Assembly: GCA_017483605.1 (NCBI GenBank)
Contig: JAFUWG010000010.1
Span: 1-64,000, forward strand
Reading direction: 5' to 3'
Length of the DNA: 64,000 nt
Source: Bacteroidaceae bacterium
GTDB lineage: Bacteria > Bacteroidota > Bacteroidia > Bacteroidales > Bacteroidaceae
Part shown: positions 2,580-51,717 of the stretch, one piece after another
How the letters are laid out: every line of letters begins with the position of its first letter
How positions within the stretch are numbered: the stretch's first letter is position 1
Program-made: the position numbers and the translations under genes
Notes under the pieces: model-generated
Told to the model about the DNA's origin: nothing
Databases searched by the model: none
The model's input: only the letters and a program-made list of their open reading frames with translations

Positions 2580-3356
2580 ATGAAAAAGATTTTTGCATTG
2601 GTAGCCGTATTGGCCATGCTGACCACCATCAGTTGCAATCAAGCGGCCACAAAGCCCGAGCACGTGGCTTTGAGCGATTCAGCCATTGAAGCCAAACTCC
2701 AGCCTCTCTACGAGAAGATTCAAAACCTTCCCGAAGACGGCAACGAGGACAAAGCCATCAAGCAGTTGGCTCTCGACTTCATCAAAGACAACGAAAACGA
2801 AGCCGGCGTGTACGTCATCCAGAGTCTTTTGGCGTTCACCATGCCTGTAGAAGAACTCATCGAGTTTGTCGATGGCAACGAGTATTTCAAGAACGACTCT
2901 ACCATCATCGAGGCAAAAAAGACTTGGAACGTTCAGTTGGAAACTGGCGAAGGCAAGATGTTCAAGGACTTCGAAACCGAGTATGAAGGCAAAGTGACCA
3001 AACTGTCTGACTATGTCGGCAAGGGCAAGTATGTGCTTGTTGACTTCTGGGCAAGTTGGTGCGGTCCCTGCCGAATGGAAATTCCCAACTTGATTGCCGT
3101 TTACAACAAGTACAAGGGCGAGAAGTTCGAGGTGCTGGGTGTTGCCACATGGGACGAGCCGGATGCCACCAAGCAAGCCATCGAAGAGTTGGGCATTCCA
3201 TATCCTCAGATGCTGAATGCACAGAAGGCTGGTAGCGACGCATACGGCATCAGCGGCATCCCACAGATTATCCTTTTTGCCCCTGACGGCAAAATCGTGA
3301 AGAGAGACCTTCGCGGCGAGGAAATCGAGAAGGCTGTGGCAGACGTGCTGAAATAA
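2580..3356 (+). CDS. TlpA/ResA-like thioredoxin lipoprotein
   Basis: Predicted periplasmic disulfide reductase anchored as a lipoprotein. The N-terminus has a lipobox ending ISC (Cys19). Residues 20-120 form a helical, poorly conserved linker region. The thioredoxin fold occupies about 125-258 with active site WASWCGPC (Cys161 and Cys164) and a cis-proline loop SGIPQI. It lies 46 nt after the peptidase gene and is probably cotranscribed. In Bacteroidales such proteins are usually general periplasmic thiol reductases; the substrate is unknown. Confidence 0.88.
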   Translation: MKKIFALVAVLAMLTTISCNQAATKPEHVALSDSAIEAKLQPLYEKIQNLPEDGNEDKAIKQLALDFIKDNENEAGVYVIQSLLAFTMPVEELIEFVDGNEYFKNDSTIIEAKKTWNVQLETGEGKMFKDFETEYEGKVTKLSDYVGKGKYVLVDFWASWCGPCRMEIPNLIAVYNKYKGEKFEVLGVATWDEPDATKQAIEELGIPYPQMLNAQKAGSDAYGISGIPQIILFAPDGKIVKRDLRGEEIEKAVADVLK

Positions 3357-3367
3357 TCACACGACGC

Positions 3368-3455
3368 ATCAAAAGTGGTCTGAGTCAGACCGCCTCGGCG
3401 GTGTGACTCAGACCACCGAAGCGGTGTGAGTCACACCACTTTTGAGGTATCGAGC
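3368..3455. repeat. 23-bp-phased palindromic repeat, family A, copy 1
   Basis: Three 15-bp near-palindromes of the form GGTSTGASTCASACC are centred at 3384, 3407 and 3430, exactly 23 bp apart. Outer AAAGTGG and CCACTTT arms enclose them. The element lies between the convergent genes ending at 3356 and 3481, where it could act as a bidirectional terminator. Other copies are at 22101 and 32719. Confidence 0.9.
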
Positions 3456-3480: not shown

Positions 3481-5517
3481 CTACTTGTACATGATGCAGG
3501 CACTTTGGGCAGGAACGGTAACGGTCTTGCCCTTTATTGTGCCCAGGCCTGTCGGAGAGATGCGTCCGCCCTGAGCGATGAGCGTGTATGAACCTTGAGG
3601 GATGGCGACACGGGCAGGCTTGGTGCGGCTGTTCAGCACGACGATGACAGACGACCATTCATCGCCCACGGCGGCACCATCCAACTGATAGGCAATCACG
3701 TTCGTGCCTTTATAGGGCAGGAAATGGAGGTGTTGACGAACCGCCTCGGCACTGCCCATGTGGAAAGCAGGATGAGCCTTGCGGATGGCAACGAGCGTGC
3801 TGACATAGTCGAACAAATCCTTATATTCGGTCTTGTTCGCCCACGGAATCGTGTTGATGGAATCGGGAGAATTATAGGAGTTATGAACCCCTTTCTTGTC
3901 ACGCAAGATTTCATCGCCACACCAGATGAAAGGTACACCCTGAGAGGTGAGGACTGCCGTCTCCGCCAGTTTCTGCAGACGAAGGACTTCCTCGGTCGAA
4001 GGAACAACAGGAGCCTTCTTCTCAGCCAAGGTCAACTTGAGTCGGTCGGCAAGACAAAGGTCGTCGTGACACGAAACATAACTAATCATCTGTGTGGGTT
4101 CTCCCGCCCATGCCTTCTGGCTGTAATTCACCTGTCCATACGCTACTTGCGGATGGTCAATGCCTCCTACGATGCCAAACTTGACACTCTCCTCGTGCCC
4201 AGGGTTTCCAATCAGGAACGCCCCCTTCTTGTCGTCATCCCAACCGCCACGAAGACCGTCACGCATCTCGTCGCCAAAAGCAGCAATGCCGGGCATCTGA
4301 GCCGTGTTCGCCTTCATCGCCAACTGCGTCTCGGGCAGGGCAGGAGCCGACGCCGCCCATCCTTCGCCATAGATGAAGATGGTCGGGTCGATGGTGTTGA
4401 CCGCCTGCCGAATGGCATTCATCGTTTCGATGTCGTGAACCCCCATGAGGTCGAAACGAAGGCCGTCAATGTGGAACTCCCGAATCCAGTACAACACACT
4501 CTCCACCATGTACTTACGCATCATCGGCATCTCACTGGCCGTTTCGTTTCCGCATCCCGACCCGTCCGACAGAGTACCATCTGCCTTGTGGCGGAAGAAG
4601 TATTCAGGACAAATCTTGTTGAATTGTGACGAGGCAGCATCAAACACGTGGTTATACACCACATCGAGCACCACACGGATGCCCGCCTTATGCAGCGACT
4701 GCACCATCTGCTTAAACTCACGAATACGCACCGACGGCTCGTAAGGATTGGTGCTGTAACTTCCTTCCGGCACGTTGTAATTCACAGGGTCGTAGCCCCA
4801 GTTATACTGCTGCGGGATACGCCCATCCGTCTGTGCCAGCACGTTTTGAGCCTCATTCACCGAGCCGTAGTCATACGAAGGGAGGATATGCACATGATTG
4901 ATTCCCAACTGCTTCAAGTGGTCAAGCCCCGTGGGAAGCCCCTGACGGTTCTTCGTGCCCGTCTCCGTCAGAGCCAAGAACTGCCCCTTGTGCTGAATGC
5001 CCGACTCCCCGTCCATCGAGAAGTCGCGGTGGTGCATCTCATAGATGATGACCTCCGAAAAATCCTTGATGACAGGTCGCTGGTCATGCTCCCACCCCTC
5101 GGGATTGGTTGCCGCCATATCGATCACCTGGGCACGGCTGCCGTTCACGCCCACCGCCTTGGCAAACATGCCCGGTGTTTCGCCATACGAACGTGAAGCA
5201 TCCTCGCCAAAAACCTCGAACGTGAAGAACTTGCCAATCAGGTTTCCCTTCACGCTGAGCGACCACGTGCCGTCGCCATTCTTGTGCAGATGATGGCGAG
5301 CCTCCACGGCTCCTCCATCGCCCTGCGGATAGATGTTGACCACCACGTCGCTTGCCAATGGCGACCACAGCGAGAAGTGGGTGGCAGAAGGGGAATACGT
5401 CATTTCGGAGATAGGACCCACGGGAACAGGCAAAGACTTCAAATCCTGTGCCTTCGCCGTCCAAAGTGATGTGCTGAGCAGAGCACCCATAAGCATTTGT
5501 TTTAAGATTCTTTTCAT
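3481..5517 (-). CDS. pulA: Type I pullulanase, exported (GH13)
   Basis: Debranching enzyme hydrolysing alpha-1,6 links in pullulan, starch or glycogen fragments. The start at 5517 gives MKRILK and a signal peptide ending TAKAQ; a longer reading frame to 5538 has no such signal. An N-terminal CBM48/E-set domain (about 30-150) precedes the barrel, with the type I signature YNWGYDP, region I DVVYNHVFD, nucleophile Asp356 in RFDLMG, acid Glu385 in GEGW and Asp485 in SCHDD. The full 678 aa are present. It is monocistronic, with TAACTTTG about 60 nt upstream of the start. There is no SusC/SusD pair nearby, so it is not part of a visible starch-utilisation locus. Confidence 0.92.
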   Translation of the reverse strand: MKRILKQMLMGALLSTSLWTAKAQDLKSLPVPVGPISEMTYSPSATHFSLWSPLASDVVVNIYPQGDGGAVEARHHLHKNGDGTWSLSVKGNLIGKFFTFEVFGEDASRSYGETPGMFAKAVGVNGSRAQVIDMAATNPEGWEHDQRPVIKDFSEVIIYEMHHRDFSMDGESGIQHKGQFLALTETGTKNRQGLPTGLDHLKQLGINHVHILPSYDYGSVNEAQNVLAQTDGRIPQQYNWGYDPVNYNVPEGSYSTNPYEPSVRIREFKQMVQSLHKAGIRVVLDVVYNHVFDAASSQFNKICPEYFFRHKADGTLSDGSGCGNETASEMPMMRKYMVESVLYWIREFHIDGLRFDLMGVHDIETMNAIRQAVNTIDPTIFIYGEGWAASAPALPETQLAMKANTAQMPGIAAFGDEMRDGLRGGWDDDKKGAFLIGNPGHEESVKFGIVGGIDHPQVAYGQVNYSQKAWAGEPTQMISYVSCHDDLCLADRLKLTLAEKKAPVVPSTEEVLRLQKLAETAVLTSQGVPFIWCGDEILRDKKGVHNSYNSPDSINTIPWANKTEYKDLFDYVSTLVAIRKAHPAFHMGSAEAVRQHLHFLPYKGTNVIAYQLDGAAVGDEWSSVIVVLNSRTKPARVAIPQGSYTLIAQGGRISPTGLGTIKGKTVTVPAQSACIMYK

Positions 5518-5576
5518 TGGTGATAAAACATGACACAACCCTGTCGCTTTCGGTTGTCAGGTTAGTAACTATGTCG

Positions 5577-5712: not shown

Positions 5713-7179
5713 ATGAGTTTATCCAAAGATGAATTGTTGGCACTTGTCAGAAAAGGTGCCAGAACGATGTCGTGGCAAGAAAAGTTGCGACTCACTGTGC
5801 TGTTGAGCCTACCCGCCATGGTGGCACAAATCTCGTCGGTTGCCATGCAGATTATCGATGCCTCCATGCTGGGGCACCTCGGCACCAAAGAGTCTGCCAC
5901 CGTAGGACTGGTTTCCACCACCATCTGGCTCTTTGGCGGACTCTGTTCTGCGTTTGCGGCAGGCTTCTCCGTGCAAGTGGCTCATTATGTCGGGGCTGAC
6001 GACCTGAAAGGAGCGAGAAACATCATTCGTCAGGGCATTGCGGCAGGATTGGCATTCAGCGTTTTCATGATGCTGCTCGGCCTTGCCATCGCACCGATGC
6101 TGCCCCACTGGTTAGGTGCCGACGAAAGCATCTGTGCCGGAGCCTCCGAATACTTCTCCATCGTTGCCGTCGCCCTCCCCATTCTGGAGATTAACATGCT
6201 GGCAGCAGGAAGTCTGCGATGCAGCGGCAACATCAAGGTGCCCAGTTTTCTCAACGCCCTCATGTGTGGCTTAGACGTAGCGTTCAACTACCTCTTCATC
6301 TTCGTCTTCAACATGGGCACGGCAGGTGCTGCCTACGGCACGCTGGTGGCATACGCCATCACCATGGCCCTGATGATGTACTTCCTTGCCGTCAGAGACC
6401 AACGCCTGCGATTCTCCCTCGACACAGAACTCCTTGACAAGTGGGACCTTGCCAGATATGTGCCCCATCGGGACACCCTCCTCAAAGCCCTCAAAATCGG
6501 CTCGCCCATCAGTTTGGAGCGAGGCGTGATGTGCGGGGCACAAATCGCCATCACGGGCATCATCGCGCCCCTTGGTTCCGTCGCCATCGCCGCCAACACC
6601 TTCGGCATCAACATCGAAAGCGTCTGCTACATGCCTGGTTACGGCATTTCCGAAGCCGCCACCACACTGGTCGGTCAGAGCCTCGGAGCCCGTCGGAAAG
6701 ACCTCATGCGTAGTTTTGCGTGGATATCAATGGGGTTAGGCATGACCATCATGGCAATCATGGGCGTGTTCATGTGGGTGTTCGCCTCCGAGATGATGTC
6801 GATTGTCACCACCGATGCCGCCGTCGTGCAACTGGGCACCGAAGTGCTTCGCATTGAGGCATGGGCAGAACCCATGTTCGCCGCCAGCATCGTTGCCTAC
6901 GGAGCCTTCGTTGGTTCGGGCAAGACCCTCGTGCCGAGCATCATGAACCTTGCCAGCATCTGGGTGGTGCGACTCACGTTAGCCATCCTTCTGGCACCCA
7001 CCATGGGGCTGCACGGCGTGTGGATCGCCATGTGCGTAGAACTCTGCTGGCGAGGTGCCGCCTTCATCTTCCGTCTCAGCCGCCGCGGATGGAGCAACAT
7101 CAGCATGGCAGAGGCAAAAGATTTGCCCAGCCAAGAAGAAAACGAAGAATACATCAAAACCATATATGAAACTGATTAA
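5713..7179 (+). CDS. MATE family multidrug exporter
   Basis: Inner-membrane antiporter of the MATE/DinF type that expels drugs or metabolites using a cation gradient. The 488-aa protein has about twelve hydrophobic helices in two related halves and typical loop sequences such as ASMLGHLGTKESATVGL and ALLKIG-like KALKIGSPISLERG. The last residues after helix 12 form a short charged tail. The next gene starts 14 nt before this one ends, so the two are translationally coupled. The substrate cannot be read from the sequence. Confidence 0.9.
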   Translation: MSLSKDELLALVRKGARTMSWQEKLRLTVLLSLPAMVAQISSVAMQIIDASMLGHLGTKESATVGLVSTTIWLFGGLCSAFAAGFSVQVAHYVGADDLKGARNIIRQGIAAGLAFSVFMMLLGLAIAPMLPHWLGADESICAGASEYFSIVAVALPILEINMLAAGSLRCSGNIKVPSFLNALMCGLDVAFNYLFIFVFNMGTAGAAYGTLVAYAITMALMMYFLAVRDQRLRFSLDTELLDKWDLARYVPHRDTLLKALKIGSPISLERGVMCGAQIAITGIIAPLGSVAIAANTFGINIESVCYMPGYGISEAATTLVGQSLGARRKDLMRSFAWISMGLGMTIMAIMGVFMWVFASEMMSIVTTDAAVVQLGTEVLRIEAWAEPMFAASIVAYGAFVGSGKTLVPSIMNLASIWVVRLTLAILLAPTMGLHGVWIAMCVELCWRGAAFIFRLSRRGWSNISMAEAKDLPSQEENEEYIKTIYETD

Positions 7180-8020
7180 AGACCAAGAATTTGGAGGTGA
7201 GCGTCCGCTCTATGCCTCCCACGACCTCCGACTGGAAGGTGTCACCATCCATCTCGGCGAATCGTCCATCAAGGAAAGCAGCAACATCGAAGCCGAGAAC
7301 TGCCGCTTCGAGGGCAAGTACGTCTTCTGGGAGAACGACGGCTTCCGCATCAACAACTGCTACTTTGCCGAGAGTGCCCGAAGCAGCCTGTGGTACTCAC
7401 GCCATTGCCGCATGACCAACTGCAAGGTCGATGCCCCCAAACTGTTCCGCCGCATGGACGACATCTATGTGGAGAACACCGATTTCCCCAATGGCGAGCA
7501 ATACCTGTGGGACTGCAAAAACATCGAACTGAAAAATGTCAAGATAGAGAACTGCGACTACGCATTCATGCACTCCGAAAACATCAAGATTGAGAACTAT
7601 CGCCAAGAGGGCAACTACGCTTTCCAGTATGCCAAGAACGTGGAGATTCGCAATGCGGTCATCAACTCGAAGGACTCCTTCTGGGAATCAGAGAACGTGA
7701 CCATCTACGACTCTGAAGTGAACGGCGAATACCTTGCCTGGTACGGCAAGAACATCCGCCTCGTCCGCTGTCACCTCACAGGCGAGCAACTCCTTTGCTA
7801 CGTCGATGGCCTCACGCTTGAAGACTGCACCTTTGGCCCCGACGCCAACCTCATCCTCGAATACTCCACGGTGAACGGCAACATCAAGGGCGATGTCCAC
7901 AGCATCAAGAACCCCACCAGCGGAACGGTCACCGTGGAAGGCAAAGTAGGCGAAATCATCTGGGACGAAAACCAGAAAGCACCCGCCGACGCAAAAATCA
8001 TTGTAAAAGAAAATCAGTAA
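7166..8020 (+). CDS. DUF3737 family right-handed beta-helix protein
   Basis: Predicted cytoplasmic protein (no signal peptide) made almost entirely of repeated strands of about 20 residues, such as NIEAENCRFEGKYVFWEN and NVEIRNAVINSKDSFWES, the pattern of a right-handed beta-helix. It matches the DUF3737 family as I remember it. The start MKLIKDQEFGG at 7166 overlaps the MATE gene by 14 nt; a longer frame upstream lies inside the MATE gene and is rejected. The coupling suggests a function shared with the exporter, but none is established. Confidence 0.8.
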   Translation: MKLIKDQEFGGERPLYASHDLRLEGVTIHLGESSIKESSNIEAENCRFEGKYVFWENDGFRINNCYFAESARSSLWYSRHCRMTNCKVDAPKLFRRMDDIYVENTDFPNGEQYLWDCKNIELKNVKIENCDYAFMHSENIKIENYRQEGNYAFQYAKNVEIRNAVINSKDSFWESENVTIYDSEVNGEYLAWYGKNIRLVRCHLTGEQLLCYVDGLTLEDCTFGPDANLILEYSTVNGNIKGDVHSIKNPTSGTVTVEGKVGEIIWDENQKAPADAKIIVKENQ

Positions 8021-8042: not shown

Positions 8043-8106
8043 CCGTACCCCTCGGGTACGACGTACCGTACCCGAGGGGTACGCTGCACCATAGCCGAGG
8101 GGTACG
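8043..8106. repeat. 23-bp-phased palindromic repeat, family B
   Basis: Three 15-bp units start at 8045, 8068 and 8091, exactly 23 bp apart. The first two, GTACCCCTCGGGTAC and GTACCCGAGGGGTAC, are reverse complements of each other; the third, ATAGCCGAGGGGTAC, is a decayed copy of the second. The element lies between the DUF3737 and patB genes, about 25 nt after the first gene's stop. Confidence 0.88.
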
Positions 8107-8152
8107 TTTCTCCAATCACACTGCAAGACACCTATCAAAAACATCAGCCACT

Positions 8153-12301: not shown

Positions 12302-12740
12302 CCGTGTACGGGGTGATGCAAGAATCACGCAGGGCTGCGTTGCGTGGTCGTGCAGAGTGTCGCATCATGATCGTGCAGGGTGGCGTATCATGATCGTGCA
12401 AGGCTACGTTGCGGAGGCTTGCAGGGTGACGCTGTGTAGAGGCGTAGGGTGACATCGGGAGGTGTTGAAGGGCGAGGCTCGGTGGACTTGCTGGGCGAGG
12501 CGATGGAGAGGCGAAGGGATACGTGGGATGGTCACGCAGGGCGAGGCGAGGATACCACACAGGGCGAGGCAAGGTGGTCAAGAAGAGTGAGGCGAGGTGG
12601 TCAAGAAGGAACACTTTGGGCAACCACGTAGGGTTTCGCAAGGCTGTCGTGCTGGATGGCGTTGGGTTGCCACGTAGGGTGACAGGATAGAGGGTGTGCA
12701 GGGTTGCGTGTAGTGGAGGTGAAGGGCTATGCATCGTTGG
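12302..12740. repeat. 23-bp-period degenerate tandem array, G-rich arm
   Basis: About 19 units repeat with an exact 23-bp period; unit starts run 12325, 12348, 12371, 12394, 12417 and so on to 12670, with one base of slippage after that. The core is (C/T)ACGCAGGGTGACG-like, with AGGG at offset +6 in most units. Units differ at many positions, so this is old or selected for phase rather than a fresh duplication. Frames stay open here in several directions but none looks coding. No gene is present. Confidence 0.88.
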
Positions 12741-12800
12741 TGGGGGTGAAAAAAATTGTGCTGTTTTTCATGATGCCCCTCAATGTTCACTCAACTCTCT

Positions 12801-13022
12801 CACCCGTCTCTTGCGGAAACGGTTGCCAATGTCTTCCTCGTCCTCATGCCCGTCATCTCAAACGACTGTGTTCCGTGTCTTCCGAGTTCTCATGCCCGTA
12901 TCTTGCTCCGCCTCTTGCCCGTGTCTTCCTTTGCCTCTTGCTCGTTATCACTTTGTTCTGAGGCTCGTCATCACCTTTTCCTCACGCTCGTCATCACTCT
13001 GCTCTCTGGCTCGTGTCTTCTG
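12801..13022. repeat. 23-bp-period array, C/T-rich arm
   Basis: About ten units with core GCYCGTCATC or GCCCGTGTCTTC keep an exact 23-bp period, the CG of the core falling at 12805, 12851, 12897, 12920, 12943, 12966, 12989 and 12012+1000. Its reverse complement (for example AGGCAAAGGAAGACACGGG) resembles units of the G-rich arm such as AGGCGAAGGGATACGTGGG, so the two arms may form one large inverted array around 12741-12800. No gene is seen. Confidence 0.82.
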
Positions 13023-13076: not shown

Positions 13077-13145
13077 ATTTCAGGGTGTGAGACGAAAATA
13101 CCTCGACACGAGTTAATTCGTGTCGAGGTATTGTATTGATTTGTT
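13077..13145. repeat. 69-bp direct repeat, left copy
   Basis: This 69-bp sequence is repeated at 13849-13917 with one mismatch (A/G). Its centre is an inverted repeat, TACCTCGACACGA pairing with TCGTGTCGAGGTA around a short AT spacer. The two copies bracket the protease cassette. Confidence 0.92.
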
Positions 13146-13180: not shown

Positions 13181-13612
13181 CTATCCTACCCAGAATGTCA
13201 ACGTCCCTTCGATGCTGTCTTCCGTACTTTCAATGTGAAGTGCTCCCATACTTATCACATCCATTCCAATTATAAGCACTTCTTGGGTTGCTTGTGTCTC
13301 AACAGGCAATCCATAGACCTCCAACGGCAGATTATAGCCCAAGGAGATGGTCATTTCAATCTCATATACAGGAAGTTCGCTGACATATCCATCAGCCATG
13401 CTAACCAGTTCGGAGCGTATGGGACTTAAATGAAGAAGTTCGGCAATCTCTTGGCTGATGCAAGTGTGAGTTGCCCCTGTATCAATAAGAGCATTTTCAA
13501 CACGGCAACTATGATTCTGTGCCATGTCTTGCAAGTTTACGCTACAAATGACCTTAAAGGAGTTCTCTGTGGGAAACGCCCTTAAAGTTATGCTTACGAA
13601 TTCGCTTTCCAT
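13181..13612 (-). CDS. Retropepsin-like aspartic protease
   Basis: A small single-domain aspartic protease, expected to act as a dimer like retroviral proteases. The catalytic motif is ALIDTGATHTCIS (about residues 43-55) and the second signature is LIIGMDVISMG near residue 120. No signal peptide or membrane helix is seen, so it should be cytoplasmic. The start MESEFVSITL at 13612 overlaps the preceding small gene by 59 nt, which indicates coupling. No retroelement reverse transcriptase is nearby. The substrate is unknown. Confidence 0.75.
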   Translation of the reverse strand: MESEFVSITLRAFPTENSFKVICSVNLQDMAQNHSCRVENALIDTGATHTCISQEIAELLHLSPIRSELVSMADGYVSELPVYEIEMTISLGYNLPLEVYGLPVETQATQEVLIIGMDVISMGALHIESTEDSIEGTLTFWVG

Positions 13613-13736
13613 TTCGTGCAATTTCTAAAGCCTTTCGTTCTTCTTCTTTCGTCATTGGAACAATCCTTGAGCGTGTGCTTTGGTATGCAGCAGGATAGAG
13701 AACCCCAACGCGACCTTTTATTTCTTTCTGTTCCAT
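13554..13736 (-). CDS. Small protein coupled to the protease
   Basis: A 60-aa basic protein starting MEQKEIKGRVGVLYP at 13736, 13-18 nt downstream of the -7 element. A charged helix MTKEEERKALEIARNGKRIR precedes the C-terminus. The reading frame overlaps the protease start by 59 nt. It could be the protease's substrate, inhibitor or DNA-binding partner; nothing in the sequence decides. Confidence 0.55.
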   Translation of the reverse strand: MEQKEIKGRVGVLYPAAYQSTRSRIVPMTKEEERKALEIARNGKRIRKHNFKGVSHRELL

Positions 13737-13848: not shown

Positions 13849-13950
13849 ATTTCAGGGTGTGAGACGAAGATACCTCGACACGAGTTAATTCGTGTCGAGG
13901 TATTGTATTGATTTGTTACCCGTGCATAAATTGATACGTATCGAGGTAAC
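13849..13950. repeat. 69-bp direct repeat, right copy, with a decayed extension
   Basis: Positions 13849-13917 repeat 13077-13145. The inverted pair at 13871-13885 and 13888-13902 recurs in decayed form at 13917-13931 and 13934-13948, exactly 46 bp (2 x 23) further on. This places the element in the same 23-bp-phase class as the other arrays. Confidence 0.85.
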
Positions 13951-17668: not shown

Positions 17669-17690
17669 GTGATTTTTGATGAAAAAGAGT

Positions 17691-17698
17691 TATCTTTG
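17691..17698 (+). promoter_or_regulatory. -7 element, plus strand
   Basis: TATCTTTG lies 40 nt upstream of the ATG at 17739. It falls inside the longer open frame from 17676, so it decides for the downstream start. The divergent element at 17661 is only 22 bp away. Confidence 0.6.
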
Positions 17699-17738
17699 TC
17701 TTTCAAAATCTATTCTATCACCTAAAAAAGACTTGAAG

Positions 17739-20288
17739 ATGTCTTTCGACTTACAGAAGGTTGCCATCATGGCAGGCAAGCGTGAAGTGACTTATGCCCA
17801 GATGCTCTATCACATCGGGGTGTATGCTCAGCAGCAGACTTTTGGCGAAGGTGGCAAGTGTCTGATTTTCGCCAACAACTGCGAGGGATGGGTGTATGCC
17901 CTCTATGCCATTTGGATGAAGAAGAGTGTCGCCGTACCGGTGGATGCCACCTCGACGGTGGATGACCTCGCCTATATCCTGTCCGACTGCACCCCCGACT
18001 GCATCTGGACTTCTCGCACCAAACTGGACACGGTGAGGGAGGCGATGAAGGAGGCAAACGTCACCGTGCCTGTGCTCTTCGTGGAGGACTATGCGACGGA
18101 AGACCCCGATGCGGACTTTTCCTACGACGCTTCTTCGCCCGAATACAATGGGGTCGTGATGCCACGCCCCGAAGCACTCTACGAACTGTCGGACGACGTG
18201 ATGCGTACCGCCCTCATCATCTACACGTCGGGCACAACAGGCTCGCCAAAGGGAGTGATGCTGTCGTTTGACAATCTGCTGGCGAACATCGAGGGAGTGT
18301 GGAAAGACGTGCCCATCTTCAGCGAAGACCGACGCACGATGATGCTCCTGCCCGTCCATCATGTGCTGCCACTGATGGGGTCGGTCATCGCCCCCATCCT
18401 GTGCGGAGGCGGCATCATCATTTGCCCGTCCCTGTCGGGTGCAGACATCATGGAGACGCTGAATCGTGGCAAGGTCGCCATCATCATCGGCGTGCCACGC
18501 CTGTGGCAAACACTTTACCGCACGATGAAGCAACGCATCGACGCTCATTTCCTCACCCGATTCTTGTTCTGGCTGTGCGAGAAGGCACAAAGCCGTGCCC
18601 TCTCCCGCTTCATCTTCAAAAGCATCCGAACCAAGATGGGCGGACACATCACCTATTGCGTGAGTGGCGGTGCGGCACTGGACTTGGAGATCGGCAAGGG
18701 GCTAAAGACGCTGGGCTTGGATGTCTTGGAAGGTTACGGCATGACGGAGGCTGCCCCAGTCATCGCTTTCACTCGCCCCGACGACATCCGACCAGGGTGT
18801 GCCGGCAAGGCTCTTCCTGCCGTGCAATGCGAGTTGCGAAACGGAGAACTGTATGCCAAAGGACGAAACATCATGCAGGGATATTACCATCGTCCGGAAG
18901 AGACGGCTGCCGTGCTACAAGACGGTTGGCTGCGGACAGGCGACCTCGCCACCATCGACAAGGACGGACACATCACCATCACCGGACGCACGAAGGAAAT
19001 CATCGTGCTCTCCAACGGTAAGAACGTCAACCCTGCCGAGTTGGAGTATCGGCTGGAGAAATTCACGGAGCAGGTGAAGGAAGCGGCTGTGCTGCCTGAC
19101 GGCGACAAACTGTGTGCCATTCTCGTGCCCCAGAAAGAATGGGCGAAAGGGAAGGACGATGCCGAGCAGGAAGAACGACTGAAGGAGGAGGTGCTGCAAC
19201 CGTACAATCAGACGGTGGAGCCATACAAGAAGGTGATGAGCCTCTTCGTCTATCATGGCGACTTGCCTCGCACCAAACTCGACAAACTCCAACGGTTCAA
19301 ACTCGCCTCTCTGTTGCAGGCAGGGGTGCATTCCGCTCCGAAGCCTCAACTGATGGAGCCGACTTTTGAAGAGTATCGACTCATCAAGCAATATATCCTC
19401 AGAGAGAAGCACCTCGACGAGTTGCGACCCACCGACAATCTGGAAACCGACCTCGCTTTCGACTCGCTCGACAACGTGGGGCTGCAAGGGTTCCTTCAGA
19501 ACACTTTCGGGTTGGATCTGACGGTGGAGGCGATGGGGCGTTTCCGCCATGTCACAGAACTGGCGGAACACGTGGCAAACTTCAAGACTCAGATGGAGAT
19601 GGCGGAGGTGGATTGGCACAGCATCCTGCACGAAGAGCATCCCGACGTGAAACTGCCCGACACATGGCCGACGGGGCCTTGGATTGTGCAGACGTTTAAG
19701 ACGTTCTTCAAGATGCAGTTCCGTCTGGCATCGAAGGGGGTGAAAAACATTCCTGCCGACCGTTCCTTCATCTTGGCGGCAAACCATCAGAGTTACCTCG
19801 ACGGCATGTTCGTGATGTCTTACGTCCAGCGGCAGCAAATCCGCAACACCTATTTCTTTGCCAAAGAGAAGCACGTCAACACGCCTATGCGCCGATGGCT
19901 TGCCAGTCGGCACAACGTGGTGGTGCTCGAACAAAACAACATGAAGCGTTCCATCGGGAAACTGGGCGATGTGCTGCGGCAAGGGAAGAACCTCATCATC
20001 TTCCCTGAAGGTACACGCACGGCAGACGGCAACTTGGGTGAGTTCAAGAAGATGTTTGCCATCCTAAGCGTAGAACTGCAAGTACCCATCGTCCCCGTGA
20101 CCATCCACGGAGCCTTCGAGGCCTTGCCACGAGGAAAGAAATGGCCTCTCCCCAAGAAAATCATGGTGGAATATCTGCCACCCGTGTGCCCTACCCCTTC
20201 GAGCACCTACGACGGCATCTGCGAGGAGGTGTGCCATGCGATAGAAAAGGCAATAGTGAAGAGAGAAAAAGGTAAAAGGGAAGAGTGA
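17739..20288 (+). CDS. Acyl-activating enzyme / ACP / acyltransferase fusion
   Basis: An 849-aa three-part lipid enzyme. Residues 1-500 are an ANL-superfamily adenylate-forming domain (TSGTTGSPKGVM near 163, GYGMTEAAPV, TGDLATIDKDG). About 555-630 is an acyl carrier domain with the phosphopantetheine site FDSLDN (Ser576). About 650-840 is a PlsC-type acyltransferase with NHQSYLD (His683, Asp688) and FPEGTRTADG. The plan is like Aas with an ACP inserted: a fatty acid would be activated, loaded on the internal ACP and passed to a lysophospholipid. The final residues KREKGKREE are encoded by an inverted repeat shared with the downstream spacer. Confidence 0.88.
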   Translation: MSFDLQKVAIMAGKREVTYAQMLYHIGVYAQQQTFGEGGKCLIFANNCEGWVYALYAIWMKKSVAVPVDATSTVDDLAYILSDCTPDCIWTSRTKLDTVREAMKEANVTVPVLFVEDYATEDPDADFSYDASSPEYNGVVMPRPEALYELSDDVMRTALIIYTSGTTGSPKGVMLSFDNLLANIEGVWKDVPIFSEDRRTMMLLPVHHVLPLMGSVIAPILCGGGIIICPSLSGADIMETLNRGKVAIIIGVPRLWQTLYRTMKQRIDAHFLTRFLFWLCEKAQSRALSRFIFKSIRTKMGGHITYCVSGGAALDLEIGKGLKTLGLDVLEGYGMTEAAPVIAFTRPDDIRPGCAGKALPAVQCELRNGELYAKGRNIMQGYYHRPEETAAVLQDGWLRTGDLATIDKDGHITITGRTKEIIVLSNGKNVNPAELEYRLEKFTEQVKEAAVLPDGDKLCAILVPQKEWAKGKDDAEQEERLKEEVLQPYNQTVEPYKKVMSLFVYHGDLPRTKLDKLQRFKLASLLQAGVHSAPKPQLMEPTFEEYRLIKQYILREKHLDELRPTDNLETDLAFDSLDNVGLQGFLQNTFGLDLTVEAMGRFRHVTELAEHVANFKTQMEMAEVDWHSILHEEHPDVKLPDTWPTGPWIVQTFKTFFKMQFRLASKGVKNIPADRSFILAANHQSYLDGMFVMSYVQRQQIRNTYFFAKEKHVNTPMRRWLASRHNVVVLEQNNMKRSIGKLGDVLRQGKNLIIFPEGTRTADGNLGEFKKMFAILSVELQVPIVPVTIHGAFEALPRGKKWPLPKKIMVEYLPPVCPTPSSTYDGICEEVCHAIEKAIVKREKGKREE

Positions 20289-20388
20289 AAAGTGAAAAAT
20301 TTGCTACCGCGAGTGTTTGCCAACAGGTGACATACTGCTGCGGTAGCAAATTTTTCACTTTTCACTCTCCCCTTTTACCTTTTTCACT
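20263..20388. terminator. Long inverted repeat between convergent genes
   Basis: A left arm of about 45 bp (20263-20310, ending AATTTGCTACCGC) pairs with 20340-20388 (GCGGTAGCAAATT onward) with a few mismatches. The left arm overlaps the last codons of the plus-strand gene. It probably terminates both convergent transcripts. Confidence 0.8.
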
Positions 20389-20415
20389 CTTCTCTTTTAC
20401 TTTTTCATTCTTTCC

Positions 20416-21504
20416 TCAGACGAACTCCTCGCCTAAGTTCAACTGTGCATCATTCACAAACTTGCGGATGTTCTTCTGGTCGCCCTTGCGGCAGATGACG
20501 AGGACATTCCCCTCTTCCACCACCACATAGTCTTCCAATCCCTGCACGACTGCCACATGGCCGTCGGGCAGTTTGATGATGCAGTCTTTGCAGTCGTAGA
20601 GGAGCGACTTCGAGTCGATGACCACGTTGCCCATGTCCGACTTGGGGAGTGCATCGTGGACAGCCGCCCAGGTGCCGAGGTCTGCCCAACCGAAGTGACA
20701 GAGCATCACGTCCACGTTGTCCGACTTCTCCAGCACGCTCTGCTCCAGGCTCATGTTTGGGCACTTCGTGAAGAGTTCCATCAGCAGGTCGGCGATGTAT
20801 TCTCCGTTGGCATACTTCTGAATGACCGACTGCACAATTCCTGCAAACTCGACGCTCGCCCCCTGCACGGCACGAAGGAAAGCATCGGCACTCCACACGA
20901 AGAGACCCGTGTTCCAGAGGAATTCGCCGCTCTCGTAGAAAATCTTAGCAAACTCGTTGGCGGGCTTCTCCGTGAAACTCTGCACTTTATATATATGTGG
21001 ATAGCCCTCCGCGGCTTCCGCCATCTGGATATAGCCGTATGACACCTCGGGGCGTGTGGGTTGAGCACCCATCGTCAGCAGCACCTGATGTGTCCCCACA
21101 AAGTCGAGTGCCTTCAGCACATCCTCCCGGAAAGCGTCATAGTCGGTAATGTTCTGGTCGGAAGGGCTGACGATGAAACGTCCTTCCGGGCAGCGGCGTT
21201 TCACCTCCAAGGCTGCCCATGTCACCGCCGGCACCGTGTTGCGCCGCATCGGCTCCATCAGGATGTTCTCATATCTGATGCCTGGAATCTGCTCCGTCAC
21301 CAGTTGGCGATAATTTTCGTTGGTGACGATAATGATGTTGTCGGTGTCAATGCAACTGGCAAAACGTTCGTAGGTCATCTGCAGCAACGTCTTCCCTGTG
21401 CCCAGCACGTCAATAAACTGTTTAGGTTTTGCTTCGCGACTCATCGGCCACAAACGGGTTCCGAGTCCGCCAGCCAGTATCACGCAATAATTTTTAATGT
21501 CCAT
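20416..21504 (-). CDS. manC: Mannose-1-phosphate guanylyltransferase
   Basis: Makes GDP-mannose from mannose-1-phosphate and GTP in the cytoplasm, for capsule, O-antigen or fucose pathways. The nucleotide-binding signature GGLGTRLWPMSREAKPKQF is near residue 12, followed by FIVSPSDQ and FTEKP. At 362 aa it lacks the C-terminal mannose-6-phosphate isomerase cupin of bifunctional enzymes. It stands alone, without other nucleotide-sugar genes. Confidence 0.93.
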   Translation of the reverse strand: MDIKNYCVILAGGLGTRLWPMSREAKPKQFIDVLGTGKTLLQMTYERFASCIDTDNIIIVTNENYRQLVTEQIPGIRYENILMEPMRRNTVPAVTWAALEVKRRCPEGRFIVSPSDQNITDYDAFREDVLKALDFVGTHQVLLTMGAQPTRPEVSYGYIQMAEAAEGYPHIYKVQSFTEKPANEFAKIFYESGEFLWNTGLFVWSADAFLRAVQGASVEFAGIVQSVIQKYANGEYIADLLMELFTKCPNMSLEQSVLEKSDNVDVMLCHFGWADLGTWAAVHDALPKSDMGNVVIDSKSLLYDCKDCIIKLPDGHVAVVQGLEDYVVVEEGNVLVICRKGDQKNIRKFVNDAQLNLGEEFV

Positions 21505-22100: not shown

Positions 22101-22189
22101 CCTCAAAAGTGGTCTGAGTCACACCGCCTCGGTGGTCTGAGTCAGACCGCTCGGGTGGTGTGACTCAGACCACTTGAGGGGTATCGAGC
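22101..22189. repeat. 23-bp-phased palindromic repeat, family A, copy 2
   Basis: Units centred at 22118, 22141 and 22164 are exactly 23 bp apart: GGTCTGAGTCACACC, GGTCTGAGTCAGACC and GGTGTGACTCAGACC. The flanks CCTCAAAAGT and GGTATCGAGC are shared with copy 1. It lies between divergent genes, so here it cannot be a terminator. Confidence 0.9.
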
Positions 22190-32718: not shown

Positions 32719-32793
32719 CCTCAAAAGCGGTCTGAGTCAGACCGCCTCGGCGGTGTGACTCAGACCACCTGGGCGGTGTGAGTCACACCACTT
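32719..32793. repeat. 23-bp-phased palindromic repeat, family A, copy 3
   Basis: Units centred at 32736, 32759 and 32782 (exact 23-bp period) match copies 1 and 2. The right flank has diverged. It lies between two minus-strand genes, upstream of a separate hairpin. Confidence 0.9.
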
Positions 32794-38951: not shown

Positions 38952-39035
38952 AAATGGGGGCACCCCAAAATCGGAGTGCCCCACATCAATCCATCGGAGT
39001 GCCCCACATCGATTCACAGATGTGGGGCACTCCGT
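38952..39035. repeat. Phased repeat, family E, at a convergent junction
   Basis: CGGAGTGCCCCACATC starts at 38972 and again at 38995, 23 bp apart, and its reverse complement follows at 39019-39034. A decayed inverted unit lies at 38952-38967. The last direct and inverted units form a 16-bp hairpin followed by TTTTTT, which should terminate the DUF4923 transcript. Confidence 0.88.
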
Positions 39036-44055: not shown

Positions 44056-44225
44056 ATATATTTATTCCAATTATCCAAATATTTGGGAAGAAAAACGTTC
44101 TTTTTCTTTGTTTTCGTTATTATTGAGTTAGCATTGCATTCAGAACCTCCACGCTCTGTCTTCCGTCGCTTCTAATAACGACCACTCATAACCTCTGCTC
44201 ACAGCCTTACATGACTAATGAAACT

Positions 44226-44353
44226 TTTAGTTTGATTATAAAAATAGATTTGGCTTGATTATACAGAATAATTTGGCTTGAATACACAAAAGTGTAATCA
44301 AGCCAAATCGGAAGTTGTAATCAAGCCAAATTTTGAGGTGTAATCAGGCTAAA
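44226..44353. repeat. Six-unit 23-bp-phased inverted array, family F
   Basis: TTTGGCTTGATTATA-type units start at 44226, 44249 and 44272; their reverse complements TGTAATCAAGCCAAA start at 44293, 44316 and 44339. Both sets keep exactly 23 bp, with a 6-nt centre. The whole is a 128-bp palindrome-like array, about 170 bp upstream of the HigBA promoter and downstream of the DUF4252 gene. Confidence 0.92.
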
Positions 44354-44403
44354 TATTTGATAGATATCGGGCAGGAGGTGGGGAAGGTGATGGAAGAACA
44401 CAA

Positions 44404-51555: not shown

Positions 51556-51667
51556 CTTAAAACTAAAGTTAAATTTTATAAAATCCAAGTTAGATTTATA
51601 TAAATTTAAGTTCAATTTTATAAAATTTAAGTTGAATTTTATAAAATCTAAGTTTAGTTTTAAGAAC
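51556..51667. repeat. 21-bp-phased AT palindrome array, family G
   Basis: Four 12-bp palindromes, ATTTTATAAAAT (three times) and ATTTATATAAAT, start at 51573, 51594, 51615 and 51636, exactly 21 bp apart. TCTTAAAACTAAA and TTTAGTTTTAAGA arms close the array as a larger inverted repeat. It sits upstream of the HU-type gene. Confidence 0.9.
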
Positions 51668-51717
51668 ACCAGCCGAAAAAGCCGCCAAATGGCACCCAAA
51701 AGACAGGATTAAAGCAG

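What the first reader, a model, noticed from the sequence alone, without database searches (positions are those of the whole stretch)
12302..13022. Intergenic arrays of 15-bp units at an exact 23-bp period, in several unrelated families
Direct observation: in this 720-bp gene-free stretch about thirty degenerate units keep a 23-bp phase although the bases have diverged. The same 23-bp phase (15-bp unit, 8-bp spacer) occurs with different sequences at 3377-3437, 8045-8105, 13871-13948, 22111-22171, 32729-32789, 38972-39010 and 44226-44353. Keeping phase while sequence drifts suggests selection on spacing, as for a protein binding one face of DNA, or a copying mechanism with a 23-bp step. I know of no named element with this plan.
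Basis: partly seen in the sequence, partly recalled or inferred. Interest (0 to 1): 0.85.

Follow-up and report, generated by a model that had tools for sequence, protein, structure and literature searches.

The report
Intergenic repeats phased every 23 bases
A gut-type bacterium and its close relatives carry many scattered non-coding repeats whose units keep an exact 23-base step although their letters have been swapped out, a plan already seen once in a gum bacterium, so what seems to be kept is the spacing and symmetry of the units, not their sequence.

Summary
Lag-23 identity over 12302-13022 is 0.50 against 0.29 in shuffles. Six of seven other listed places hold the phase; 13871-13948 does not. 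In 465 kb of this genome 23 leads among lags 10-60 (38 segments, next 9). It also leads in five relatives of the genus, not in G016 or G002; outside the genus 2 segments in 667 kb.

Class I elements are three palindromes centred 23 bp apart between inverted arms, folding as one hairpin; 49 elements in about eight sequence families (grouped by eye) share one layout with strong covariation. Class II, which includes the finding's locus, are long direct arrays copied to several loci; copies differ by substitutions and whole 23-bp units, with few other indels.

I read these as MITE-like repeats of that plan, diversified here, with spacing under constraint, most likely because units are protein-binding sites about two helical turns apart. 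No cognate protein or transposase was identified.

The parts
12302..12760. class II array, first (G-rich) half: about 18 degenerate 23-bp units, conserved core about GCAGGGtGACG; no other copy found in the DNA searched
12762..13022 (.). class II array, second (C-rich) half, family F: about 10 units; copies in L055, L043, L048 (own genome) and L149-L153 (G061); L163 (G034) added in the alignment
3377..3437 (.). class I element family A, 3 x GGTSTGASTCASACC at 23 bp with inverted arms
   Evidence: absent at the syntenic place in G061
8043..8108 (.). class I element family B, 3 x GTACCCCTCGGGTAC type at 23 bp, 22 bases after the stop of ORF 7055-8020; kept at the same place in G061
22111..22171 (.). 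class I element family A; no such array at the syntenic place in G061
32729..32789 (.). class I element family A
38963..39034 (.). class I-like element: two direct units GGAGTGCCCCACATC and one inverted
44223..44360 (.). family C, three direct then three inverted A+T-rich units (TTTGGCTTGATTACA type); predicted hairpin of stem stretches separated by 5-7-base loops; second copy in L038
51566..51672 (.). sister element with period 21-22: palindromes ATTTTATAAAAT between inverted arms; further copies in L041, L042, L045, L046, L053

Best explanation
These are dispersed, non-coding, MITE-like repeats built from units spaced about two helical turns apart. SHOWN: the same multi-unit elements recur at many intergenic places; some are present in one and absent in the other of two close relatives; three-unit elements share one layout (inverted arms, three palindromes centred 23 bp apart); sequence families replace one another under covariation; non-23 indels are scarce in the long arrays. 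INFERRED: each unit is a binding site for a protein (dimeric where the unit is a palindrome), several copies of which must sit at fixed distances; this is what fixes the step. The protein is either the machinery that once mobilised the elements or a host DNA-binding protein that now uses them. Families differ because the recognised sequence has changed in step with its protein while the geometry stayed. The finding's locus is a long direct-array member of this set, on the plan of BrickBuilt.
For: Own genome: 174 exact adjacent pairs of GGTSTGASTCASACC at 23 bp, reversed-pattern control 0. Spacing of neighbouring A units (up to two mismatches, up to 120 bp apart) is 23 in 36 of 37 cases in own DNA and 14 of 18 in same-genus DNA, the rest 24; B 9 of 9 and 8 of 8. 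Lag 23 leads in G000, G061, G007, G023, G032, G034. Layout and covariation: 49 elements, 77% of cells paired against 34-39% when slid by 1-3; 43 of 49 positions with at least two sequences changed on both sides, against 23-33 when slid. Elements were chosen for hairpin symmetry and centred, so the percentage paired is partly built in; the variety of pair types is less so. Hairpin-forming arrays occur almost only at lags 21-23: in 1.34 Mb of the genus 56 at lag 23, 9 at 21, 6 at 22 (three of these re-read lag-21 arrays), none at 24, and 5 in all over 15-20 and 25-35; outside the genus (667 kb) 2 at lag 22 and 1 at 32. Scarcity of non-23 indels in class II. At one orthologous A element two changes fall in the 45 core positions, both at C/G-variable positions of the family, and four in the 16 spacer positions (counted by eye). 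A elements sit in co-directional, convergent and divergent gaps 12:7:6, as random insertion would give (crude gene calls).
Against: No protein was identified and no binding was tested. 23 bp is 2.19 turns, so successive sites would be rotated by about 70 degrees. The only Y1 transposase gene found in the own genome has other palindromes beside it (by eye) and no family A element; a weak lag-23 stretch lies about 1.3 kb downstream of it, with lag-21 and lag-22 stretches nearer by, none examined. No insertion sequence with the arms' outermost motifs was seen (by eye). Target-site duplications could not be read because intergenic DNA of the nearest relative is too diverged. In G016 and G002 of the same genus lag 23 does not lead. 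Class I and class II may have separate origins and share 23 by coincidence. The indel control uses crude gene calls, one genome pair and local alignments that cannot hold long gaps; class II pairs are not independent.
Confidence: 0.5

Rival explanations
1. Hairpin, not protein spacing: the elements work as long RNA or single-stranded DNA hairpins (transcript ends, RNase targets, or hairpins taken by a transposase); 21-23 bp is about two turns of A-form duplex.
For: RNA fold z-scores: A -9.6, -4.7, -11.8; B -5.7; D -9.8; L148 type -7.8; C -13.6. Covariation about one centre. B elements lie within 75 bp of a stop codon in 10 of 10 cases, against 7 of 25 for A (Fisher p 1e-4; crude gene calls, the window one corrected by eye, and one B flagged as inside a crude ORF).
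Against: The finding's second half does not fold (z +0.8) nor does the L055 copy (z +1.7), and the first half only weakly (-3.1), yet they keep the same step. A hairpin needs one centre of symmetry, not units that are each palindromic and repeated at a fixed step. The commonest A unit (CTGAGTCAC core) has a mismatch when folded on itself.
Confidence: 0.25
2. Plain minisatellites carried by MITEs: the 23-bp step is an accident of ancestral arrays and spreads by copying; no selection on spacing.
For: Tandem repeats of other periods exist in the three groups of DNA sampled. MITEs carrying minisatellites are known (PMC4596501, which also names a 41-nt type).
Against: Several sequence families share 23. 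Non-23 indels are scarce in diverged class II copies: four against about 38 expected from the control rate. Spacers between conserved cores vary in sequence but hardly in length.
Confidence: 0.2
3. A copying or duplication enzyme with a 23-bp ruler (for example staggered cuts 23 bp apart, or template-directed repeat addition) makes the arrays.
For: Gain and loss of exactly one 23-bp unit in class II copies; 23 leads the lag spectrum in six genomes of the genus.
Against: Dispersed copies share the order of their diverged units, so whole arrays were copied; sister elements have period 21-22. No candidate enzyme was sought.
Confidence: 0.05

Closest known systems
BrickBuilt MITE of Porphyromonas gingivalis (Klein et al. 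2015, PMC4596501; read: abstract, parts 1-2 of 9 of the text, part 1 of 2 of section 7, section 8)
   Same: 23-nt imperfect tandem repeats, variable unit number, intergenic and dispersed, one part of the unit more conserved than the other, strain differences in unit number; same bacterial order by my recollection.
   Different: Its consensus AGAYCATARTATCCTCTCRTRTG was not found here. The paper reports 19 copies, no spacers, non-repetitive leader and tail with IS5-like ends. Here there are several sequence families, a three-palindrome hairpin class not described in the parts I read, an estimated 90 copies of one family, and ends unlike the published ones.
REP / REPIN elements with their RAYT transposases (recalled; of PMC3733652 only the search listing with the start of its abstract was seen)
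   Same: Small extragenic palindromes in many copies whose sequence differs between lineages while the fold is kept.
   Different: Three palindromes at a fixed 23-bp step. The own Y1 transposase gene has other palindromes beside it and no family A element; the GTAG tag is absent from the three family A elements checked.
Plasmid iterons (recalled, not tested)
   Same: Direct repeats about 22 bp apart, about two turns, bound by a Rep protein.
   Different: Iterons lie at one origin; these are scattered over a chromosome. No search for a Rep gene was made.

Membership tests
BrickBuilt-type MITE (minisatellite within a MITE) | 23-nt imperfect tandem repeat | tested here: met
BrickBuilt-type MITE (minisatellite within a MITE) | multi-copy, dispersed, intergenic | tested here: met
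   family F in 4 own and 5 G061 places; family A 174 pairs; positions against crude gene calls (one B element flagged as inside a crude ORF; F arrays overlap spurious ORFs)
BrickBuilt-type MITE (minisatellite within a MITE) | leader and tail with short terminal inverted repeats like those of a resident IS | tested here: inconclusive
   class I has inverted arms but no IS with such ends was seen; class II leaders align only in part
BrickBuilt-type MITE (minisatellite within a MITE) | sequence homology to the published 23-mer | tested here: not met
   0 matches with up to 3 mismatches in the window; best in the 2.4 Mb held has 5 mismatches
REP/REPIN | GTAG or CGTC tag | tested here: inconclusive
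   GTAG or its complement absent from 3 of 3 window family A elements; CGTC or its complement present in 2 of 3, position not tested
REP/REPIN | cognate RAYT gene flanked by the element | tested here: not met
   the one PF01797 gene found in the 81.5% complete assembly has other palindromes beside it and no family A element in 1.5 kb on either side; a weak lag-23 stretch lies about 1.3 kb downstream
MITE (general) | target-site duplication and empty site | tested here: inconclusive
   presence/absence between relatives seen, exact ends unreadable
CRISPR array | near-identical repeats with unique spacers of roughly repeat length | tested here: not met
   units diverged, 8-bp spacers

The most novel reading that the evidence does not exclude
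A lineage-wide class of elements whose conserved trait is geometry alone: palindromic or direct sites every two helical turns (21-23 bp), with the recognised sequence replaced again and again by covarying change between close species, implying a fast-changing DNA-binding partner (transposase or nucleoid protein) that measures distance; BrickBuilt would be a distant outlier of the same principle.
Probability: 0.3. Interest if true: 0.75.

Novelty: new variant of a known kind. Interest (0 to 1): 0.55.

Why it matters
If spacing rather than sequence is what is kept, these arrays give a direct way to find the protein that reads them, and a natural series of about eight sequence variants on one layout with which to study how a DNA-binding partner and its sites change together. 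They also bear on BrickBuilt: the same step in a second lineage suggests that 23 is not an accident of one species.

Tried and rejected
DUF4143 ATPase link: two 23-bp arrays flank a gene that looks by eye like an AAA_14-DUF4143 ATPase in another family of the order (L090), and the own DUF4143 gene has a 22-bp array at its start (L107). Among 30 fetched DUF4143 loci (the 30 given out of many more matches) there was no general link: one row at period 23, none at 22. Dropped as an explanation, kept as a lead.

RAYT/REP: not supported, though a weak lag-23 stretch and lag-21 and lag-22 stretches lie in that locus and were not examined. IS with matching ends: 16 places with the motif GAGGNTRTGTCAAAA and 33 with CGNNATAGGACAAAATNR (one mismatch allowed); by eye one pair about 140 bp apart, which is a class I element, and none at insertion-sequence distance. 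Phage or plasmid origin: no match of 12302-13022 in the phage and plasmid collections at E 1e-5; no viral contig with the exact A or B pattern. Rfam: no hit in the window at gathering score. The two halves of 12302-13022 as an inverted pair: weak (4 of 200 shuffles as good), not claimed. Empty sites with exact ends: not readable. Literature searches. A first indel count with a stiffer gap penalty, array columns only and L153 left out, gave only gaps of 23 and 46; the count with control-like scoring gave four other gaps and is the one used. The leader of L048 and L150 also shows a phase break of about 13 bases against other copies (by eye).

Full report
WHAT WAS CHECKED. The 720-bp stretch 12302-13022 has lag-23 identity 0.499. 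Shuffling each half 2000 times gives 0.290 with sd 0.016 and a maximum of 0.354, and no other lag from 5 to 59 except 46 exceeds 0.314. It consists of two arrays of different consensus with a short non-repeating middle. Six of the seven other places hold a 23-bp phase; 13871-13948 does not. Three overlapping reading frames have no Pfam family, and Rfam has no hit in the window.

GENOME-WIDE. The window lies in a 3.06-Mb, 56-contig assembly, 81.5% complete. The 32 named loci that carry family A (a capped list) come from MAGs titled Prevotellaceae, Bacteroidaceae or Bacteroidales, two of them from goat reticulum and roe deer rumen. Counting stretches with at least 27 of 38 matches at lag L (lags 10-60), 23 has 38 segments in 465,319 bp and the next lag, 21, has 9. 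A slightly different merging rule over lags 5-100 gave 39 in 457,000 bp, next lag 7 with 12, and 0 at every lag in one Markov resample. Lag-23 segments per 100 kb: G000 8.2, G061 7.7, G007 7.8, G023 10.1 (2 segments in 20 kb), G032 5.0, G034 8.3; in G016 0.7 and G002 0.8, where other lags lead; in eight other same-genus genomes together 2.6, level with lag 14; outside the genus 2 segments in 667 kb, both in G054. Of those 40 outside stretches two are from another genus of the same family, the rest from other families. The choice of stretches was not random: several G007, G023, G032 and G034 stretches were taken because family A hits had been reported there, which raises their figures; own stretches come from contigs high in the list, G061 stretches partly from contigs with class II hits.

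CLASS I. An exact pattern for two neighbouring units GGTSTGASTCASACC-N8 finds 174 places in the own genome, 3-17 places in 4 of 36 other same-genus genomes and none in 24 genomes of other families, with 0 for the reversed pattern. The own sample holds 14 exact trimers, so I estimate about 90 elements in all. Seventeen aligned copies show inverted arms, about CTCGAtaCCTCaAAAGT before and ACTTTtGAGGtaTCGAG after. A symmetry screen of 102 lag-23 segments in stretches of 14 genomes of the genus gave 56 hairpins, 49 of them centred on a base and found in 8 genomes. Laid out about their centres without gaps, all but one (L163 19664) show three palindromes in register: the ends of the middle 15-mer are G and C in 48 of 49, those of the outer pair in 48 of 49. 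Their inner 15-mers fall into families that I group by eye: GGTSTGASTCASACC, GTACCCCTCGGGTAC, GACCACGWCGTGGTC, GAYRTCGWCGACRTC, GATGTCCCCGACATC with GGAGTCSSSSACTCC, GACGTGGGGCACGTC, GGACTGSWSCAGTCC, GGAGWGAGTCTYACC. Paired cells are 77% in register and 34-39% when slid; 43 of 49 positions show at least two sequences with both sides changed (slid versions 23-33). Since elements were picked for symmetry, the first figure is partly circular. Related copies count more than once.

TWO-TURN PERIODS. Hairpin arrays appear at lag 23 (29 own, 27 other same-genus), lag 21 (7 and 2) and lag 22 (3 and 3, three of them re-readings of lag-21 arrays), none at 24, and 5 in all at lags 15-20 and 25-35; outside the genus 2 at lag 22 and 1 at lag 32. 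Two of the nine lag-21 rows (L050, L070) look like other kinds of repeat. The A+T-rich lag-21 family is in the window at 51566-51672 and in five other own stretches.

CLASS II. The second half of the finding's locus has BLAST matches to three further own places and five loci of G061; one in G034 (L163) was added for the alignment of ten copies. With scoring like that of the control, nine pairs show 311 substitutions and gaps of 23, 23, 7, 6, 1 and 1. Non-coding DNA aligned between the own genome and G061 (2,794 sites) shows 483 substitutions and 59 indels of 1-10 bases; local alignments cannot hold long gaps, so the lack of 23-base gaps there means little. At that rate 38 indels were expected and 4 non-23 gaps seen; the nominal Poisson probability is 3e-12, which overstates the case because pairs share sequences. 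Three pairs that share no copy (window-L055, L150-L149, L151-L152) still give 147 substitutions and two non-23 gaps against about 18 expected (from, reckoned by hand). A phase break of about 13 bases in the leader of L048 and L150 is visible by eye.

PLACEMENT AND TURNOVER. Family A sits in co-directional, convergent and divergent gaps 12:7:6. Two of the window's A elements are missing at the syntenic place in G061, while one on own contig C1 is shared with it; there two of 45 core positions changed, both at C/G-variable positions, and four of 16 spacer positions (counted by eye). Family B lies near stop codons (10 of 10 within 75 bp; A 7 of 25) and the copy at 8043 is kept in G061. So A looks like a recent spread and B like an older, perhaps adopted, element.

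WHAT IT WORKS LIKE. The class I elements tested fold strongly (z -4.7 to -11.8; family C -13.6) but the class II arrays tested do not. The trait common to both is the step. The simplest reading is a row of binding sites at a fixed distance of about two turns; this is an inference and no protein is known. RNA or DNA hairpin function is the main rival for class I.

WHAT IS KNOWN. The parts I read report nucleotide matches in P. gingivalis and homologues in P. gulae. Its 23-mer was not found here. A search for the name found three papers; the other two were seen as passages (PMC5771137, PMC10969869). I found no report of the three-palindrome class in the searches, where apart from these three papers only listings were seen; the library lacks most subscription papers.

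VERDICT. Real, constrained in spacing, on a plan already published once, but in a new and much more diversified form. New variant of a known kind; interest 0.55.

Noticed in passing
window 13080-13145 and 13853-13918: A repeat of about 65 bp with a perfect hairpin (tacctcgacacgagttaattcgtgtcgaggta) occurs twice in direct order, flanking a small aspartyl-protease-like gene (13181-13621 -, Pfam PF13975).
   Followed up: partly
window 51566-51672; L041, L042, L045, L046, L053: A sister family of A+T-rich hairpin arrays with 21-22-bp period and inverted arms, in six places of the own sample.
   Followed up: partly
window 20245-20291 and 20359-20416: Two 22-bp arrays, one purine-rich and one pyrimidine-rich, about 70 bp apart; the first overlaps the end of ORF 17676-20288.
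   Followed up: no
L090 8227-8304 and 9629-9757: In another family of the order, 23-bp arrays (CTCACAAGTTTGTCA units) flank an ATPase gene that looks like AAA_14-DUF4143 by eye.
   Followed up: partly
L107 2550-2629: A 22-bp array lies at the start of the own genome's DUF4143 gene.
   Followed up: partly
L139: The single Y1 (RAYT-like) transposase gene has its own palindromes nearby (CCCTGAAGGGGCGA, by eye); lag-21 and lag-23 stretches lie at 3079-3235.
   Followed up: no
window 3481-5538: A pullulanase-like gene (PF21653, PF00128) next to a family A element is missing from the syntenic place in G061.
   Followed up: no
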